From assembly GCA_022775005.1 (NCBI GenBank), contig JALFJR010000059.1:1-63818 (forward strand): a stretch of DNA of 63,818 bases. The letters are read 5' to 3'. Every line of letters begins with the position of its first letter. The first letter of the stretch is position 1. The DNA is from Parabacteroides sp. GTDB lineage: Bacteria; Bacteroidota; Bacteroidia; Bacteroidales; Tannerellaceae. Shown here piece by piece: positions 20,497-26,716 of this stretch. Under the pieces are notes generated by a model that had not been told where the DNA came from, did no database searches, and saw only the letters and a program-made list of their open reading frames with translations. The translations under genes and the position numbers were made by a program.

Positions 20497-20597
20497 ATGC
20501 GTTTCGTTATTGTATCATACTTTTTCGTTTTTGCGTAGCCAGCTCCAAAAGCAGTACGAAAAATGTGTTTCTTTGCAGTAACAAAGAAAGAAAGACT

Positions 20598-21614
20598 ATG
20601 GGCGTATTAGATAATGATTACATTCGAATCAAAGAAAAACCGTGGCTGATTAGCTTGGTCTGCACCATTTTCGTGGTTTATCCCAATGTGGCTTGGCTAT
20701 ATTGTGAATTGACATTCCTTTCCCACCAAGAGCAGCTGAACTTTATCTTGTTCACACTCTTTCGATTCCTGTTCTTTTGGGCGTTTATTTGGGGAGCCAT
20801 TCGCTACAACTTCATGCGACTCTCGACCCCTCACTTTCTCCGCCGGTTAGGTTGGAACTCACTGATCACCCTCGTTGCGTTTCTGGTTTATATGGTGATT
20901 ACCCACCTGACTCAAAACTACGACCGCTTTCTGAGCATCCTTGTCTTCCAGTTCATCGTGATGTGTTTGTTGAATACCTTGGTAGGCTATATCACCCTGC
21001 TCTACTCCCTGCAACGGGAAAAAGATCAAGAGATTGAGCAACTGCGTATCGAGAACCTGCAAAGCCAATGTAACGCATTGACCAACCAGATCAACCCTCA
21101 TTTCTTCTTCAATGCGCTCAATGGCATCAGTGCCTTGATCCGTAGGAAGAATGACGAATCCACCCTGCTGTACGTGACCAAACTATCCGACATTTTCCGC
21201 TACACATTGCAAAGCGAGAAGAAAGGCTTAGTCACGCTGGAGGAGGAATTAGCTTTTGCGGAAGCCTTCAGCCATGTCATGGAGGTGCGCTTTAGTGGTA
21301 AATTCTTCGTCCATTTCGAGGTACCGGAAGACAAACGGAAATTAAGAATCCCTGTGCTCTCGCTGCTGCCCCTTATCGAGAACACAACCGTGCACAATGC
21401 GATCGACCGTGAGAATCCCATGCATATCTATATTCAGCTCAATGAAGAGGATGAATTGATCATTTCCAATTCCATTTGTCCGAAGCTGACTCCTCCCGAC
21501 ACGAACGGGACAGGATTGAACAACCTGCGCAATCGCTTCAAACTACTTATGAACAGTGATATTCGTGTCGTAAATGATGGGAAAACCTTTTCTGTTTATT
21601 TACCATTAAAATAG
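20598..21614 (+). CDS. LytS-type sensor histidine kinase
   Basis: 338 residues from the ATG at 20598 (MGVLDNDYIRIKEKPW); an in-frame ATG 33 nt upstream is less likely. Four membrane segments fill residues 15-140. A coiled coil (LQREKDQEIEQLRIENLQSQ) leads into the His_kinase domain with NQINPHFFFNALNGI, the phospho-acceptor His being in NPHFFFN. The C-terminal ATPase domain has NTTVHNAI and GTGLNNLRNRF. It sits 5 nt before the LytTR regulator. The signal is unknown. Confidence 0.9.
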   Translation: MGVLDNDYIRIKEKPWLISLVCTIFVVYPNVAWLYCELTFLSHQEQLNFILFTLFRFLFFWAFIWGAIRYNFMRLSTPHFLRRLGWNSLITLVAFLVYMVITHLTQNYDRFLSILVFQFIVMCLLNTLVGYITLLYSLQREKDQEIEQLRIENLQSQCNALTNQINPHFFFNALNGISALIRRKNDESTLLYVTKLSDIFRYTLQSEKKGLVTLEEELAFAEAFSHVMEVRFSGKFFVHFEVPEDKRKLRIPVLSLLPLIENTTVHNAIDRENPMHIYIQLNEEDELIISNSICPKLTPPDTNGTGLNNLRNRFKLLMNSDIRVVNDGKTFSVYLPLK

Positions 21615-21619
21615 GCATC

Positions 21620-22375
21620 ATGAAAATACTGATCGTTGAAGACGAGACCACCGCATACGAGAATTTGGTCGAGATATTAGCAGAAGTAGCCCCTGAGGCT
21701 GAGGTGTTAGACAATACCGAGAGCATTCGTCAAACCGTTCGTTGGCTGCAATCTCACCCCAAACCAGATTTGATTTTGATGGACATCCATCTTTCGGATG
21801 GCTCCTCCTTCGCTATCTTCGAGCACACAGAGGTAGAGTCTCCCATTATCTTCACCACGGCTTATGATCAATATGCTATCGATGCATTCAAGGTGAATAG
21901 CATTGATTATCTATTAAAGCCGATTAAGCCGGAAGATTTACGCCGCGCATTAGACAAATATAGCAGACTGAACAATCAAGATATATTGAGCTATTTAGCC
22001 AAATTAAACCAACTCTCGGAGGCCCCCAAATACAAGGATAAAATCTTGATTCCCTATAAAGACAAATTACTTCCCATCAATATGCGGGAGATTGCCTGCT
22101 TTTACACAACGGATAAAAACACCTGTGTTTATCTCACAGATGGCCGTAGTTACCCCTATACAAAAACACTCGACCAAATCTATGCCACACTTAATCCGGC
22201 AGAATTCATCCGTGCGAATAAGCAGTATATTTTATCTCGTAATAGCGTGAAAGAGATCACGATATGGTTTGATAGCCGCCTGTTGATTAACTTAACAATC
22301 GATGTTCCTGAGCGCATCTACGTTAGCAAGAATAAGGCTTCCGAATTCAAGAACTGGATCGTAAACCAAGAATGA
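21620..22375 (+). CDS. LytTR-family response regulator
   Basis: 251 residues. The receiver domain has the acidic pair E7-D8, phospho-acceptor Asp55 in LILMDIHL, and Lys in YLLKPIKPEDL. The C-terminal LytTR DNA-binding domain spans about 145-245 (KDKLLPINMREIACFYT, then FIRANKQYILSRNSVKEI). It is paired with the LytS-type kinase and ends 18 nt from the convergent arsC-like gene. Target genes cannot be deduced. Confidence 0.9.
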   Translation: MKILIVEDETTAYENLVEILAEVAPEAEVLDNTESIRQTVRWLQSHPKPDLILMDIHLSDGSSFAIFEHTEVESPIIFTTAYDQYAIDAFKVNSIDYLLKPIKPEDLRRALDKYSRLNNQDILSYLAKLNQLSEAPKYKDKILIPYKDKLLPINMREIACFYTTDKNTCVYLTDGRSYPYTKTLDQIYATLNPAEFIRANKQYILSRNSVKEITIWFDSRLLINLTIDVPERIYVSKNKASEFKNWIVNQE

Positions 22376-22393: not shown

Positions 22394-22918
22394 TCACTTC
22401 CGTTCTTCCATCTCGCAATAGAGCTGGAAAAAGTCTCGATCAATATCGTCGCGGATGCGTCGGAACTCATTGAGCACATGCTCGTAGGAGCCAGTTGCTT
22501 TGGACGGATCCTCATAACCCATGTGAATCTGATGCTTTACGTTGCCATGAAAGACAGGGCAGGTTTCCTTAGCGTGATCACACACCGTGATGACGTAATC
22601 CCAATCCTCGTTGAGGTATTCATCCACTTGACAAGGCTTGTGGTCACTGATGTCAATTCCTCGCTCACGCATCACCATGACCGCCTTGGGATTGACTCGT
22701 TTTTCCGCTCTCACACCACCGGAATAGACCACCACGTCCTTACCATAAGAGGCCAATAACCCGTGAGCCATTTGGCTGCGGCAGGTGTTACCTGTGCATA
22801 GGATTAATACTTTGATGCCGTGTTTTCCAGCTGTCTTCGGTTCATTCGCAAAGGTTGTCGCACTGAGCAACAACAGACTCATGCAGGCCATGAGCAAGCC
22901 ACAAACATGTCTTTTCAT
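22394..22918 (-). CDS. arsC: Arsenate reductase (thioredoxin-coupled, LMW-phosphatase fold) with export signal
   Basis: 174 residues. Residues 1-24 are a signal peptide: basic MKRH, a hydrophobic core VCGLLMACMSLLLLSA, cleavage after TFA. The catalytic P-loop CTGNTCRS starts at Cys41 (C-x5-R47). The redox pair Cys113 and Cys120 in CDHAKETC matches the S. aureus-type C82/C89 spacing, so the three-cysteine thioredoxin mechanism is intact. No in-frame start codon exists between the signal and the P-loop, so a cytosolic form is unlikely. It is the last gene of the arsR-aquaporin-GTPase-porin group. A periplasmic site of action is inferred; a phosphatase-like role is an alternative. Confidence 0.82.
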   Translation of the reverse strand: MKRHVCGLLMACMSLLLLSATTFANEPKTAGKHGIKVLILCTGNTCRSQMAHGLLASYGKDVVVYSGGVRAEKRVNPKAVMVMRERGIDISDHKPCQVDEYLNEDWDYVITVCDHAKETCPVFHGNVKHQIHMGYEDPSKATGSYEHVLNEFRRIRDDIDRDFFQLYCEMEERK

Positions 22919-22949: not shown

Positions 22950-24221
22950 TTAAATGCCCACTTCGAGTACAAAACGGAACTGCCAGCGGTCATAGCCAGC
23001 GAGTGCTTCCGTGCGATGATTATAGGAGGCATCGGCTTGCACCTTGAAGTTGTGTCCCATCAGGTATTTAGTGATCCCGAGCGTCGTCTGGTTGAACTGT
23101 TTGTAGCCCACCACTGGACGGATCTCCTCCTCAGGAAAGAGTGTGGCGTTACGCAGGGCCAAACTCCAATGTTTCGGCAACATGTAGCTGGCTTGCACAT
23201 TGACACCCTTGCCGGCGAAAATGGCCGTCTCAGGTGCTGCGTCAAACAGTGGATCAGAGCAGGCTCGTCCCATGAAATCGGCAGCGAAGGCAAAACCTCT
23301 GTATTTGAAGACCAAGTCGGCGAAGTAGCTCTTTAAAGAACGGGTCTCACCATTAAGGAGGAAATCTCCCGTCTGCCCATTCAGGCGGGTCGCCTTATCG
23401 TTGTAGGAGATGCCTCCGCCCAACATCAATTTAGGCTGTTCCTCATGCTCGTAGTCTCCCTCGAATGCCTCACCTTTACCTTTGAAGGAGCCCAAAGGAA
23501 AGAGTTCCAAACGACCGGAATAAGCAAATCCGCTTTGGCTACTGCTTTTGCCCCAGTTGCGTCCCTCGCCCATCGTGATAGAGGCTTTAGCCGCCACGTC
23601 AAACGGGCCAGCTACCGTATGATAAAACTCGCCAAAGAAACCGAAATCACGGTCTAACTGAAACTGTCCATCCACGATGCTACGATCCACGAACTCCAAG
23701 GCACTCGACGAGGTGCTATGCGCCCGATTGACCTTGATCTTTGCCTGTCCTACACCGAAGTTCCAATGGTTGTTGGGCTTATAAAAGAGAATAGCGTTAC
23801 GCACGACATTGGAATTACCATTAGGCGCAGTCTTCATATCATTAGGTGCAAAGCCCAACTGGATGGAGTAAATCAATTTGGGCGAGAGCACATAACCCTC
23901 GAAGTTGAGGCGGATGCGTTTCACTTCCGCATCGGTCATCGTATGGTGGAAATCCTCATCGAGGTCAAACTCCAACAGACTCTGCATACGGGCACGCATT
24001 GTCATCCCGAAAGTTTTGTTGCGTGCCTGGAAGGAGACACCCTTGCCCACCTCGATAAACGGCATGTTCTTCAATTGCTCCATCAGCTCATTAGATTCGC
24101 TGACACGGATACCACTGAGTTGCTTCTGCTCTTCCTGCGAAAAGGCTACGGTAGCGATACCGCAGAGCAGGCCAAAGGTCAGCAGGGCCTTGCGCCCTGC
24201 ATGTCGTCTCACATCCATCAT
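22950..24221 (-). CDS. Phosphate-selective porin O/P-like outer-membrane protein
   Basis: 423 residues. The N-terminus is basic (MDVRRHAGRK) with a signal ending near AFS-QEE. A short acidic helix-like segment precedes the barrel. Long beta strands with alternating aromatics run from MTMRARMQSLLEFDLDEDF to the C-terminal FRFVLEVGI. FEGYVLSPKLIYSIQLGFAP and VNRAHSTSSSALEFVDRSIVDG are typical of the OprO/OprP-like family. Its start overlaps the GTPase stop by 4 nt. In this operon it could admit phosphate or arsenate anions, which is inference. Confidence 0.82.
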   Translation of the reverse strand: MMDVRRHAGRKALLTFGLLCGIATVAFSQEEQKQLSGIRVSESNELMEQLKNMPFIEVGKGVSFQARNKTFGMTMRARMQSLLEFDLDEDFHHTMTDAEVKRIRLNFEGYVLSPKLIYSIQLGFAPNDMKTAPNGNSNVVRNAILFYKPNNHWNFGVGQAKIKVNRAHSTSSSALEFVDRSIVDGQFQLDRDFGFFGEFYHTVAGPFDVAAKASITMGEGRNWGKSSSQSGFAYSGRLELFPLGSFKGKGEAFEGDYEHEEQPKLMLGGGISYNDKATRLNGQTGDFLLNGETRSLKSYFADLVFKYRGFAFAADFMGRACSDPLFDAAPETAIFAGKGVNVQASYMLPKHWSLALRNATLFPEEEIRPVVGYKQFNQTTLGITKYLMGHNFKVQADASYNHRTEALAGYDRWQFRFVLEVGI

Positions 24222-25318
24222 TGAATTGGAACAATTTCAGTGAAACGGTGAGTTGGATTCGGACGGCCCGGTTGCAGGAAGCGCCAAGCCAAAACCTCCT
24301 CGCGAAGTGTATCGCCCAAGAGCTCCGTCAAGACCTCTTTGATCAGTCGGTTCAGTTCCTCCGGGGTGGTCTCCACACGGGCATTGAGAATCAGTTTCAG
24401 GTCCTCACCCGCTCCCGCATGTCCTCTGAGGGTGAGCGTCTCTCGTGTGCCGGTTAGATTGCCCACGGCATACCCCTTGCCATTCTCTGCGATGGCCTTT
24501 ACATGACCCACAGCATACCCCTTGGCATCAAAGCGAGTCGCCAATGCCTCCATCAGTCGGCGAAGCCAAGCATCCCAATCGGCACAGGTGCCATGCAGCA
24601 TTAGCGTACCATTCAACCAACCCAAGACCGCCTCACCATGTGCGTAGGTATCGTAGTCGATCTCTAACAGTCGCTTGCCGGCATCGATGCGACTCATTAC
24701 CGCCTCCAACCATTCGGTCAAACCGGTACCATGCAGTGCACTGGCCGCTAAGATGGTGGCTTGTGGGAAGGCGGCTGTTGTGCGTGCTTTCAACTCTGCC
24801 AAAGCCTCCTCACTCAGCAGGTCGCATTTGTTGAGCAGGATCAGGTCGCTCTCCTCCAACTGCTTCCGGAAGATGTAGGCGGCATCGGGATGCAACCCCG
24901 CTGATTCGCCAGATAGGATGGCGTTCAATCGCATCGGATCAGCCAGCACCGTCAACGGGGCGATGCGCAACTCGGCATTCCAATAGTGTTTCAGTGGTTG
25001 CATGATGGTGGCGGAGAGGTCGGTGCAGCTACCCACCGGCTCTGCCAAGATCACATCGGCGGCACCCTCTGCTTTGACTCGCTGAAAGGCCTCTACGAAG
25101 CCATTGAAGTTGCAACAGAAGCAGCTGCCACTCACTTCGGCCACCTGCAATGCCTGCCGACGAAGCAACTCACTATCCACCAACTCTGGTGCTTGATCGT
25201 TGGTAATCAAACCGACCCGCAGGCCTTGCTGCATGAGTCGGATGGCGCTTTCCCACAAAAGGGTGGTCTTTCCTGCGCCAAGGAAACCCCCTACCATGAT
25301 CAGTCTTGTCTGTTTCAT
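24218..25318 (-). CDS. COG0523 (CobW-like) metal-chaperone GTPase
   Basis: 366 residues. Walker A GGFLGAGKTT at residues 10-19, the family's metal-binding motif SCFCCNF (C-x-C-C), the guanine-specific NKCD and a C-terminal CobW_C domain (about 215-366). COG0523 GTPases deliver metals such as Zn, Co or Ni to target proteins, or act in metal stress. Here the gene lies between an aquaglyceroporin and a porin in an ArsR-controlled group, so a link to arsenite or to thiol/zinc damage by it is plausible but unproven. Confidence 0.88.
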   Translation of the reverse strand: MKQTRLIMVGGFLGAGKTTLLWESAIRLMQQGLRVGLITNDQAPELVDSELLRRQALQVAEVSGSCFCCNFNGFVEAFQRVKAEGAADVILAEPVGSCTDLSATIMQPLKHYWNAELRIAPLTVLADPMRLNAILSGESAGLHPDAAYIFRKQLEESDLILLNKCDLLSEEALAELKARTTAAFPQATILAASALHGTGLTEWLEAVMSRIDAGKRLLEIDYDTYAHGEAVLGWLNGTLMLHGTCADWDAWLRRLMEALATRFDAKGYAVGHVKAIAENGKGYAVGNLTGTRETLTLRGHAGAGEDLKLILNARVETTPEELNRLIKEVLTELLGDTLREEVLAWRFLQPGRPNPTHRFTEIVPIQ

Positions 25319-25341: not shown

Positions 25342-26151
25342 TTAATTACAGCCACAGGATGTGTCTTTGCGCTTGATTAGCGGTTCGATGCCATAGGTCA
25401 AGGCATAAGCAGCCAATGTGCCACCCAACAAGGGTGAGAAGATATAGACCCAGAAGAAGCCGCCGCTACCCGGCTGCGGGAAAGCAGCCTCTCCCCAGCC
25501 CATCAACCAAGCTACCAAACGGGGTCCAAAATCACGTGCGGGATTCAGGCCGGCCTGCGTCAGCGGAGCTACCAAGAAGATGATGGAGGAAACCGTCAAA
25601 CCGATGAAGAGCGGAGCCAACGCATCGCTGGGACGGCCCACATTGCAGCCCTCTGTCAAGGCAAAGATGAACATGACCAACAGGAATGTGCCAAAGCCCT
25701 CGGCAAACATCGCGAGCGGCATAGAAACCACCGCTCCCGTATCCCCCGGATTGGGATAGAACTCACCGAACATACGGGCGGTATCAACGGAGGCCGCCGT
25801 ACCTCGCACGATCTGATGCGCCGATTCGTAGGCGGCGATGGAGGGGGCGAAAAGCAGGTAGAGCACCAAACCTGCAGCGAATGCGCCAAGCAGTTGTGCC
25901 GTGATATAAGGTAATAATTTGTTTGCCGACATCCGTTTACTCAAGACCATCGCCAAGGTGACCGCCGGATTCAGGTGGGCACAAGAGAGATAACGGGTCA
26001 AATAAATCGCCAAGGTGACGGCTGTTCCCCAGATCAACCCGACCTGAAAGATGCCACTATATTCACCAAACAAAATCGCCACGGCTACGGATCCGCAGCC
26101 AAACAGGGTCAGCACAAAGGTGCCGATACCCTCTCCTACAAATGCTTTCAT
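25342..26151 (-). CDS. Aquaglyceroporin (GlpF/AqpS-like MIP channel)
   Basis: 269 residues with six predicted membrane helices and the two NPA boxes: HLNPAVTLAM and GLNPARDFGPR. The Asp after the second NPAR is characteristic of glycerol-conducting rather than water-only channels. The C-terminal tail ends in DTSCGCN, with a Cys-x-Cys pair. GlpF-type channels also pass uncharged arsenous acid; in Sinorhizobium AqpS replaces the ArsB pump. The arsR gene upstream and the arsC-like gene downstream support the same use here. A plain glycerol role is possible, but no glycerol kinase is nearby. Confidence 0.9.
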   Translation of the reverse strand: MKAFVGEGIGTFVLTLFGCGSVAVAILFGEYSGIFQVGLIWGTAVTLAIYLTRYLSCAHLNPAVTLAMVLSKRMSANKLLPYITAQLLGAFAAGLVLYLLFAPSIAAYESAHQIVRGTAASVDTARMFGEFYPNPGDTGAVVSMPLAMFAEGFGTFLLVMFIFALTEGCNVGRPSDALAPLFIGLTVSSIIFLVAPLTQAGLNPARDFGPRLVAWLMGWGEAAFPQPGSGGFFWVYIFSPLLGGTLAAYALTYGIEPLIKRKDTSCGCN

Positions 26152-26380: not shown

Positions 26381-26716
26381 TTAATCATCGCAACAACTGC
26401 GTTTCTTGCTGACGCAATCCGCAAAAAACTCAGCCAAAAGTTGGCGGGCAATCTCCCAGTTTTCTCGATTGATACAATACTTCACCTTGGGCGTTTCGAT
26501 CTCGCCTTGAATCAATCCGGCCTCCTTTAACTCTTTGAGGTGTTGCGACACCGTAGCTTTGGCAATGGGTAGCTCCTCGTGGATTGCGCCGAAGTAGCAA
26601 ACCTCCTGGCGGGCCAGGAAGTGAAGGATCGCGATGCGGGCAGGATGTCCCAACGCTTTGGCAAAGCGGGCGATCCGTTCCTGCTGTTTGGTGTAATCGT
26701 TTCGTTTTTCGTCCAT
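26381..26716 (-). CDS. arsR: ArsR-family metalloregulator
   Basis: 111 residues of winged helix-turn-helix: [18 protein letters not shown], then the recognition helix [17 protein letters not shown] and the wing [11 protein letters not shown]. The E. coli-type CxC motif is absent (only Cys40 in EVCYFG). The C-terminus has Cys101 and the vicinal pair Cys108-Cys109 in [12 protein letters not shown], close to the C-terminal arsenite site of the Acidithiobacillus ArsR. It lies 17 nt after the lrp-like gene and 229 nt before the aquaglyceroporin gene, which has its own candidate promoter. Confidence 0.9.

What the first reader, a model, noticed from the sequence alone, without database searches (positions are those of the whole stretch)
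22394..22918. Thioredoxin-type arsenate reductase with an N-terminal export signal
The P-loop (Cys41-x5-Arg47) and redox pair (Cys113, Cys120) are complete, yet residues 1-24 form a typical signal peptide and no in-frame ATG, GTG or TTG lies between it and the P-loop. Known ArsC enzymes of this class work in the cytosol with thioredoxin. A periplasmic form would reduce arsenate before it enters the cell, probably with a TlpA/ResA-like partner.
Basis: partly seen in the sequence, partly recalled or inferred. Interest (0 to 1): 0.8.

Follow-up and report, generated by a model that had tools for sequence, protein, structure and literature searches.

The report
Exported arsenate reductase of gut Bacteroidales
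A gut bacterium carries an arsenic-detoxifying enzyme with an export signal, so it probably works outside the inner membrane instead of inside the cell; a whole family of gut and rumen relatives keeps the signal, often beside an unusual channel and helper protein and mostly without the usual arsenic pumps.

Summary
ORF 22394-22918 (-) is a thioredoxin-type ArsC relative with complete catalytic and redox cysteines behind a signal peptide. In named genomes 21 loci form one clade (bootstrap/SH-aLRT 97/95). All 21 keep an N-terminal signal (by eye 19 signal-peptidase-I-like, 2 lipoprotein-like) and the catalytic cysteines. Other readable relatives nearly all have an ATG a few residues before the P-loop and read as cytosolic. 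In 20 of 21 genomes the exported form is the only detected pI258-type ArsC. A GlpF-like channel and a CobW GTPase lie in the fetched flanks of 11 of 21 exported loci against 0 of 104 other ArsC loci; ACR3 in 0 of 21 against 60 of 104; but ArsR in only 4 of 21 against 69 of 104. Export is well supported. Arsenate reduction in the periplasm, a DsbD-fed reductant and the role of the channel are inferred. One 2013 genome paper (PMC3534657) predicts a periplasmic ArsC in one sentence; my searches, of open-licence papers only and seen as capped listings, showed no account of such a family. I rate it a new variant of a known kind, worth testing.

The parts
22394..22918 (-). Exported ArsC-type arsenate reductase, 174 aa
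   Evidence: 100% identical in Parabacteroides distasonis An897
22847..22918 (-). Signal peptide, residues 1-24 (cleavage expected after Ala24, TFA|N)
   Evidence: a signal in 21 of 21 clade members
22778..22798 (-). P-loop Cys41-x5-Arg47 (CTGNTCR)
   Evidence: same motif in 21 of 21 exported loci
22559..22582 (-). Redox pair Cys113-x6-Cys120
   Evidence: present in 21 of 21 exported loci
22950..24221 (-). Outer-membrane porin, Porin_O_P family, signal-like N-terminus; 31 bases upstream of ArsC
   Evidence: a relative next to ArsC in 2 of 21 exported loci, L071 and L084
24218..25318 (-). CobW (COG0523-type) GTPase with a CFCC motif; overlaps the porin start by 4 bases
   Evidence: orthologue in 16 of 21 exported-ArsC genomes
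25342..26151 (-). GlpF-like MIP channel with a C-terminal CGC tail
   Evidence: orthologue in 17 of 21 exported-ArsC genomes, one of them partial
26381..26716 (-). ArsR-family repressor, first gene of the run
   Evidence: 70-78% identical to ArsR near cytosolic ArsC in five same-genus genomes
20565..21614 (+). LytS-type histidine kinase, convergent neighbour; possible module member
   Evidence: relatives lie near MIP-CobW in L071, L075, L076, L085, L246, L248
21620..22375 (+). LytTR response regulator, partner of the kinase

Best explanation
It is an exported variant of the thioredoxin-type arsenate reductase ArsC. The Sec signal delivers it to the periplasm (in two relatives, to a membrane as a lipoprotein). 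There Cys41 attacks arsenate, Cys113 releases arsenite, and the Cys113-Cys120 disulfide is re-reduced by electrons that DsbD brings through the membrane, directly or through a thioredoxin-like periplasmic protein. Arsenate is thus turned into uncharged arsenite before phosphate transporters can concentrate it in the cytosol. The GlpF-like channel of the same run of genes lets arsenite equilibrate across the inner membrane, which vents the cytosol and lets the cytosolic ArsR sense it; the CobW GTPase protects or repairs metal sites. Shown here: export signal and its conservation, catalytic residues, gene company, pumps not detected, presence of DsbD. Inferred: location in the cell, activity, partner, roles of channel and GTPase.
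For: Signal in 21 of 21 clade members and catalytic cysteines in 21 of 21. One clade, 97/95. Residues 1-31 drift, 8 of 31 identical against 120 of 143 in the rest. Four exported proteins score 113-121 bits on TIGR02691, two cytosolic ones 127 and 117. Only detected pI258-type ArsC in 20 of 21 genomes. ACR3 over cut-off in 2 of 22 genomes, ArsB in 0 of 22. In fetched flanks ACR3 0 of 21 against 60 of 104; MIP and CobW each 11 of 21 against 0 of 104. DsbD_TM in 21 of 22; own DsbD 688 aa with cysteine pairs near both ends. Window ArsR 70-78% identical to ArsR near cytosolic ArsC in five same-genus genomes. In An897 the cytosolic arsC between arsA and acr3 is deleted, 32 bases left, while the exported copy is intact.
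Against: No experiment and no SignalP run. ArsR is in the flanks of only 4 of 21 exported loci, against 69 of 104 others, so a link to arsenic by regulator holds for few. The window's own genome also has a cytosolic ArsC beside arsD, arsA and acr3. A channel admitting arsenite next to an enzyme that makes it outside looks self-defeating unless the arsenite is diluted. MIP orthologues occur in 5 other genomes of the 393 in the order sample, without an exported-type ArsC match. No reductant is encoded in the run. Glutaredoxin-type (R773) ArsC was not searched for, so another ArsC class may be present. Most carriers are metagenome-assembled, so absences may be gaps. Internal start codons exist in parts of the clade. 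No structure model was obtained.
Confidence: 0.6

Rival explanations
1. The protein is exported but its substrate is not arsenate: a periplasmic thiol enzyme or phosphatase of the LMW-PTP fold acting on another oxyanion or on protein phosphates.
For: Pfam finds only LMWPc; TIGR02691 is below its cut-off; ArsR is near only 4 of 21 exported loci; the triplet at the place of a potassium site in S. aureus ArsC (recalled) is TSD in 24 cytosolic rows and in no exported row, which read KPC, TPH, TPQ, KPH or TPC.
Against: Cys113 and Cys120, which phosphatases of this fold lack (recalled), are kept in 21 of 21; a cytosolic ArsC named so by NCBI and the own cytosolic copy also miss the model's cut-off; many cytosolic rows also lack TSD; ArsR heads the run in the window, L071, L094 and L095 and lies next to ArsC in L088.
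Confidence: 0.18
2. The signal is present but a cytosolic form is made in practice, from an internal start or by inefficient export.
For: Start codons lie inside the window's signal (TTG8, ATG10, ATG13, TTG16, TTG17). ATG at codon 16 occurs in 11 of 21 clade loci and ATG at codon 21 in 6 of 21; GTG codons lie in the strand before the P-loop in many.
Against: No internal start is common to the clade, none lies between signal and P-loop in the window protein, L079 has none after the core, and two members carry a lipobox-like end instead.
Confidence: 0.14
3. The MIP-CobW pair is a separate module for another small solute or metal, and exported ArsC merely sits beside it.
For: The pair is found in G080, G626, G628, G717 and G794, where no exported-type ArsC was matched, and often next to a LytS-LytR pair; in 5 exported-ArsC genomes the pair lies on another contig than ArsC.
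Against: Those 5 genomes still keep it; 0 of 104 other ArsC loci have it in their flanks, 11 of 21 exported ones do; an ArsR lies beside it in L244 as well.
Confidence: 0.35

Closest known systems
Thioredoxin-coupled ArsC, pI258 type (S. aureus, B. subtilis ArsC, 1jl3, 1ljl)
   Same: P-loop, redox cysteine pair with the same spacing, DP motif, alignment over residues 37-161
   Different: ArsC is described as cytoplasmic (PMC9751042, passages seen); this clade has a signal peptide
arsR-aqpS-arsC operon of Sinorhizobium meliloti (PMC6205960, passages seen)
   Same: An aquaglyceroporin-like channel stands with ArsR and ArsC where a pump would be
   Different: There the channel lets arsenite made inside the cell out; here ArsC is exported, and a CobW GTPase is added
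Bacteroidales ars operons with ACR3 (own genome C108; Prevotella nigrescens)
   Same: Same ArsC family; relatives outside the clade are 36-61% identical
   Different: ArsC cytosolic, ACR3 pump present, no MIP or CobW among the neighbours annotated
Melioribacter roseus ArsC Mros1065 (PMC3534657, passages seen)
   Same: One sentence predicts a periplasmic ArsC
   Different: No signal peptide or data for it in the passages seen; operon with permease and efflux pump, no MIP or CobW named there
Respiratory arsenate reductase ArrAB (recalled)
   Same: Arsenate reduction outside the cytosol
   Different: Molybdopterin enzyme of another fold; energy conserving

Membership tests
Thioredoxin-coupled ArsC (pI258 type) | P-loop Cys-x5-Arg with CTGN-CRSQ signature | tested here: met
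   window and 21 of 21 clade loci
Thioredoxin-coupled ArsC (pI258 type) | Two further redox cysteines, Cys-x6-Cys | tested here: met
   21 of 21 clade loci
Thioredoxin-coupled ArsC (pI258 type) | Curated score cut-off of TIGR02691 (174.3 bits) | tested here: not met
   120.4 bits; but a cytosolic ArsC named as such by NCBI scores 117.1 and the own cytosolic copy 127.4, so the cut-off does not separate exported from cytosolic forms
Thioredoxin-coupled ArsC (pI258 type) | Falls within the family tree | tested here: met
   clade nested among Bacteroidales ArsC in a midpoint-rooted tree; 19 exported against 95 cytosolic rows
Thioredoxin-coupled ArsC (pI258 type) | Cytosolic location of described members | tested here: not met
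   signal peptide in the window and in 21 of 21 clade loci; prediction, not experiment
Thioredoxin-coupled ArsC (pI258 type) | Arsenate reduction with thioredoxin | not testable with these tools
   needs biochemistry
[quoted passage not shown]
   the pair is present
AqpS-type ars operon | Channel with arsR and arsC, no ArsB/ACR3 in the operon | tested here: met
   in the window; in the clade ArsR is in the flanks of 4 of 21 loci only
AqpS-type ars operon | Cytosolic ArsC feeding the channel | tested here: not met
   ArsC has a signal peptide
AqpS-type ars operon | Channel conducts arsenite | not testable with these tools
   best solved relative is GlpF; conduction not tested
Respiratory arsenate reductase | Molybdopterin subunit ArrA | tested here: not met
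   this protein is a single LMWPc domain with no other Pfam match; the genomes were not searched for ArrA

The most novel reading that the evidence does not exclude
Gut and rumen Bacteroidales use a distinct arsenic strategy: arsenate is reduced outside the inner membrane by an exported ArsC fed by DsbD, no arsenite pump is needed, and a GlpF-like channel plus a CxCC GTPase replace it, with the channel also carrying the arsenite signal inward to ArsR where one is present.
Probability: 0.33. Interest if true: 0.8.

Novelty: new variant of a known kind. Interest (0 to 1): 0.65.

Why it matters
The usual account of arsenate detoxification reduces arsenate in the cytosol and then pumps arsenite out. 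A conserved exported ArsC, in genomes where ArsB was not found and ACR3 rarely, would mean that some gut and rumen bacteria convert arsenate outside the cytosol. That changes how one predicts arsenic tolerance and arsenic release in the gut from genomes, since annotation as plain arsC hides the location, and it makes a periplasmic thiol pathway (DsbD) a testable part of arsenic metabolism. Two strains named in the public records (Parabacteroides An897 and ZJ-118) carry it and make it directly testable.

Tried and rejected
Chance or mis-called start: rejected, because the signal recurs in 21 of 21 clade loci with diverged sequence. Of 48 loci held from the class sample, the order sample and one plasmid, 46 could be read and none met my signal criteria (3 of the 48 repeat loci; these samples gave loci only for their best matches). 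Ten further matches without a locus were fetched and read: all have an ATG 6-9 residues before the P-loop; L289 also has an upstream in-frame stretch that is partly hydrophobic. Lipoprotein for the window protein (LMAC at 9-12): thought unlikely, the core before Cys12 is short and L072 has no cysteine there; not excluded. Redox partner: none in the window's run; of the neighbours that I annotated only one, upstream of ArsC in L077, has a thioredoxin-like domain; not every neighbour of every locus was annotated. Operator repeats: nothing convincing. Plasmids: 950 records with relatives, 0 cover 80% of the query; the best one opened is a cytosolic arsC.

Rows dropped: 7 loci without a readable in-frame P-loop (L034, L048, L050, L105, L122, L127, L130); repeats L001, L031, L032. 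In some searches cytosolic proteins were started at the last ATG, which makes them short by construction; counted from the first ATG, 86 of 97 lie within 11 residues of the P-loop cysteine and 11 of 97 further out, among them L045 with an 89-residue extension that holds a hydrophobic stretch (it also has an ATG 7 residues before the cysteine) and L030, an acetyltransferase-like fusion. The 62-row tree uses 43 cytosolic rows that I picked from the 95. The first neighbourhood map mistook antisense frames for genes and was replaced. The genome-contig scan kept the best 80 of 298 relatives, so exported forms of low identity could be missed.

Full report
What is there. The ORF at 22394-22918 on the minus strand encodes 174 aa from an ATG. 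Pfam finds the LMWPc domain over residues 37-162 (given as 36-161, where the query lacked Met1). The best NCBIfam model is TIGR02691, thioredoxin-type arsenate reductase, 120 bits, below its cut-off of 174. The best solved relatives are 8p5n, named a low-molecular-weight phosphatase family protein by its depositors, and then ArsC entries such as 1jl3 and 1ljl. Cys41, Arg47, Cys113 and Cys120 are all there, and codons 25-40 hold no start codon. The N-terminus MKRHVCGLLMACMSLLLLSATTFA|NEPK has a positive end, a hydrophobic core of mean hydropathy 2.74 and a good cleavage site. Four window proteins that I take as exported score 1.68 to 3.36 and seven that I take as cytosolic 0.42 to 1.93.

Is the signal real and conserved. 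A scan of named genomes returned the best 80 of 298 loci. In 21 of them (L071-L089, L094, L095) the protein has an N-terminal signal: by eye 19 resemble signal peptidase I signals, and L086 and L088 have lipobox-like ends (LHGC, LTGC). In all 21 the P-loop and both redox cysteines are intact. The other readable relatives make 97 rows; in 86 of 97 the first in-frame ATG lies within 11 residues of the P-loop cysteine. Of the 11 others, L030 is a fusion and L045 has a long upstream frame with a hydrophobic stretch but also a normal ATG. Class and order samples of 395 and 393 genomes gave loci for their best matches only: 46 of 48 loci were readable, none with a signal by my criteria (one of the 48 is a plasmid), and ten more that I fetched have an ATG 6-9 residues before the P-loop. 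Between the two Parabacteroides strains residues 1-31 share 8 of 31 positions and the rest 120 of 143. In the rumen members the likely cleavage (NA|QKHGIKVLVL) leaves a mature protein that begins almost where the cytosolic enzymes begin. Internal start codons occur in parts of the clade: ATG16 in 11 of 21 and ATG21 in 6 of 21; none is common to all.

Family tree. With the signal left out, the exported forms fall in one clade: SH-aLRT 95 among 114 rows, bootstrap/SH-aLRT 97/95 among 62 rows (43 cytosolic rows of my choice). It has two well supported halves, one with L071-L086 (99/97) and one with L087-L089, L094 and L095 (100/99). The label changes once on the tree. The root is not inferred, and the bootstrap had not fully settled.

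Gene company. In the window the run is ArsR (26381-26716), MIP channel (25342-26151), CobW GTPase (24218-25318), Porin_O_P (22950-24221), ArsC (22394-22918), all on the minus strand. CobW and porin overlap by 4 bases; porin and ArsC lie 31 bases apart. In the fetched flanks, of unequal length, MIP and CobW each occur in 11 of 21 exported loci and 0 of 104 other ArsC loci; ACR3 in 0 of 21 and 60 of 104; ArsR in 4 of 21 and 69 of 104; a relative of the porin in 2 of 21 and 0 of 104 (Fisher p 1.9e-10 for MIP and 1.9e-7 for ACR3, with no correction for kinship). Genome-wide, the CobW orthologue is in 16 of 21 exported-ArsC genomes and the MIP orthologue in 17 of 21, one partial. In five genomes (those of L074, L080, L082, L083, L084) the pair lies together on another contig than ArsC. 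So MIP and CobW go with exported ArsC, although MIP orthologues also occur in 5 further genomes of the 393 in the order sample, in which no exported-type ArsC was matched.

What was not found. In 20 of 21 exported-ArsC genomes this is the only ArsC of its class at E 1e-20; G494 has one more, cytosolic. The window's own genome has two. ACR3 over its cut-off is found in 2 of 22 genomes, the window's own and An897, with weak matches under the cut-off in three more. ArsB is found in 0 of 22 and ArsP_1 in 12 of 22. Glutaredoxin-type ArsC was not searched for. Many of these genomes are metagenome-assembled, so single absences are weak; ZJ-118 (G001, 99% complete) has none of the three. The window's own genome keeps a cytosolic arsC in an arsD-arsA-arsC-acr3 run on contig C108. 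In An897 the same run lacks arsC: the flanking genes align on both sides and 32 bases of the start remain, while its exported ArsC is identical to the window's.

How it may work. The chemistry is inferred from pI258-type ArsC (recalled): Cys41 binds arsenate, Cys113 attacks, arsenite leaves, Cys113-Cys120 forms a disulfide. In the cytosol thioredoxin would reduce it; in the periplasm electrons must come through the membrane. DsbD_TM proteins are found in 21 of 22 genomes, and the window genome's DsbD is a complete 688 aa frame with a cysteine pair near each end. Thioredoxin_8 matches number 10, 10 and 8 in the three Parabacteroides genomes. Which of them, if any, serves ArsC is unknown. Reduction outside the cytosol would stop phosphate transporters from concentrating arsenate. 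The channel is nearest to GlpF among solved structures; GlpF is a known route for arsenite, and AqpS of Sinorhizobium may replace a pump (PMC6205960, passages seen). Because ArsR is cytosolic and arsenite would be made outside, a channel would also let the inducer in; this is my proposal. The CobW GTPase carries a CFCC motif in the 21 aligned rows; a role in metal-site protection is a guess from what is said of COG0523 proteins (PMC4531530, passages seen).

Against the reading. There is no experiment. ArsR is near few of the exported loci. The channel would also let toxic arsenite in. The triplet at the recalled potassium site is TSD in 24 cytosolic rows and in no exported row, though other cytosolic rows lack it too. 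The TIGR02691 cut-off is not met, but an NCBI-named cytosolic ArsC of Prevotella nigrescens (117 bits) and the own cytosolic copy (127 bits) fail it as well.

What is known. ArsC is described as cytoplasmic (PMC9751042, passages seen). A search for six phrases such as periplasmic ArsC and exported arsenate reductase gave 3 papers, each with one use of the words periplasmic arsenate reductase; I saw only the listing and did not open them. Searches, seen as listings that show 25 of 68, 20 of 42, 20 of 23, 15 of 54, 10 of 28 and 7 of 7 papers, held no title or abstract start on such a family. One sentence in the Melioribacter roseus genome paper predicts a periplasmic ArsC; the passages seen show no signal for it (PMC3534657). 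So the idea has been voiced at least once; the conserved exported clade and its MIP-CobW company I did not find described in these searches, which cover only open-licence papers.

Verdict. It is an exported variant of a known enzyme family with unusual gene company, interest 0.65.

Noticed in passing
window 20565-22375 (+): A LytS-LytTR two-component pair next to the run recurs near MIP-CobW in L071, L075, L076, L085, L246 and L248, the last two without exported ArsC in the stretch; it may belong to the MIP-CobW module.
   Followed up: partly
L072, L078, L088, L094, L248, L253, L254: PQQ/BamB-like beta-propeller genes, in some of these loci with FtsX and ABC transporter genes, lie near MIP-CobW or exported ArsC; meaning unknown.
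   Followed up: partly
L244:5872-7101 and L247:2564-3799: A second, distant CobW GTPase (28-30% identical) precedes the MIP-CobW pair.
   Followed up: no
L256:8044-8075 (An897): Cytosolic arsC between arsA and acr3 is deleted, only the first 32 bases remain, while the exported ArsC is intact.
   Followed up: yes
L038:7643-8356: A small membrane protein that looks like a DsbD/ArsG-type permease (by eye) stands between ArsR and cytosolic ArsC; NCBI names a gene ArsG in a Prevotella plasmid record.
   Followed up: no
L030, frame of ArsC: Cytosolic ArsC in frame behind an acetyltransferase-like stretch (ArsN-like fusion, judged by eye).
   Followed up: no
L046, L047: ArsC-like proteins in two same-genus genomes with the P-loop arginine replaced by leucine (CSDNSCLSQ) and no Cys-x6-Cys pair; probably not reductases.
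   Followed up: no
window 25342-26151 (-), C-terminus: The MIP channel ends in a CxC tail in 15 of 22 aligned rows; absent in L078, L081, L087, L088, L094, L095 and L254. Perhaps a thiol metal-binding tail.
   Followed up: no
window about 23000: G+C rises from about 0.44 to the left of 23 kb to about 0.51-0.57 to the right of it, with a dip at 26 kb.
   Followed up: no
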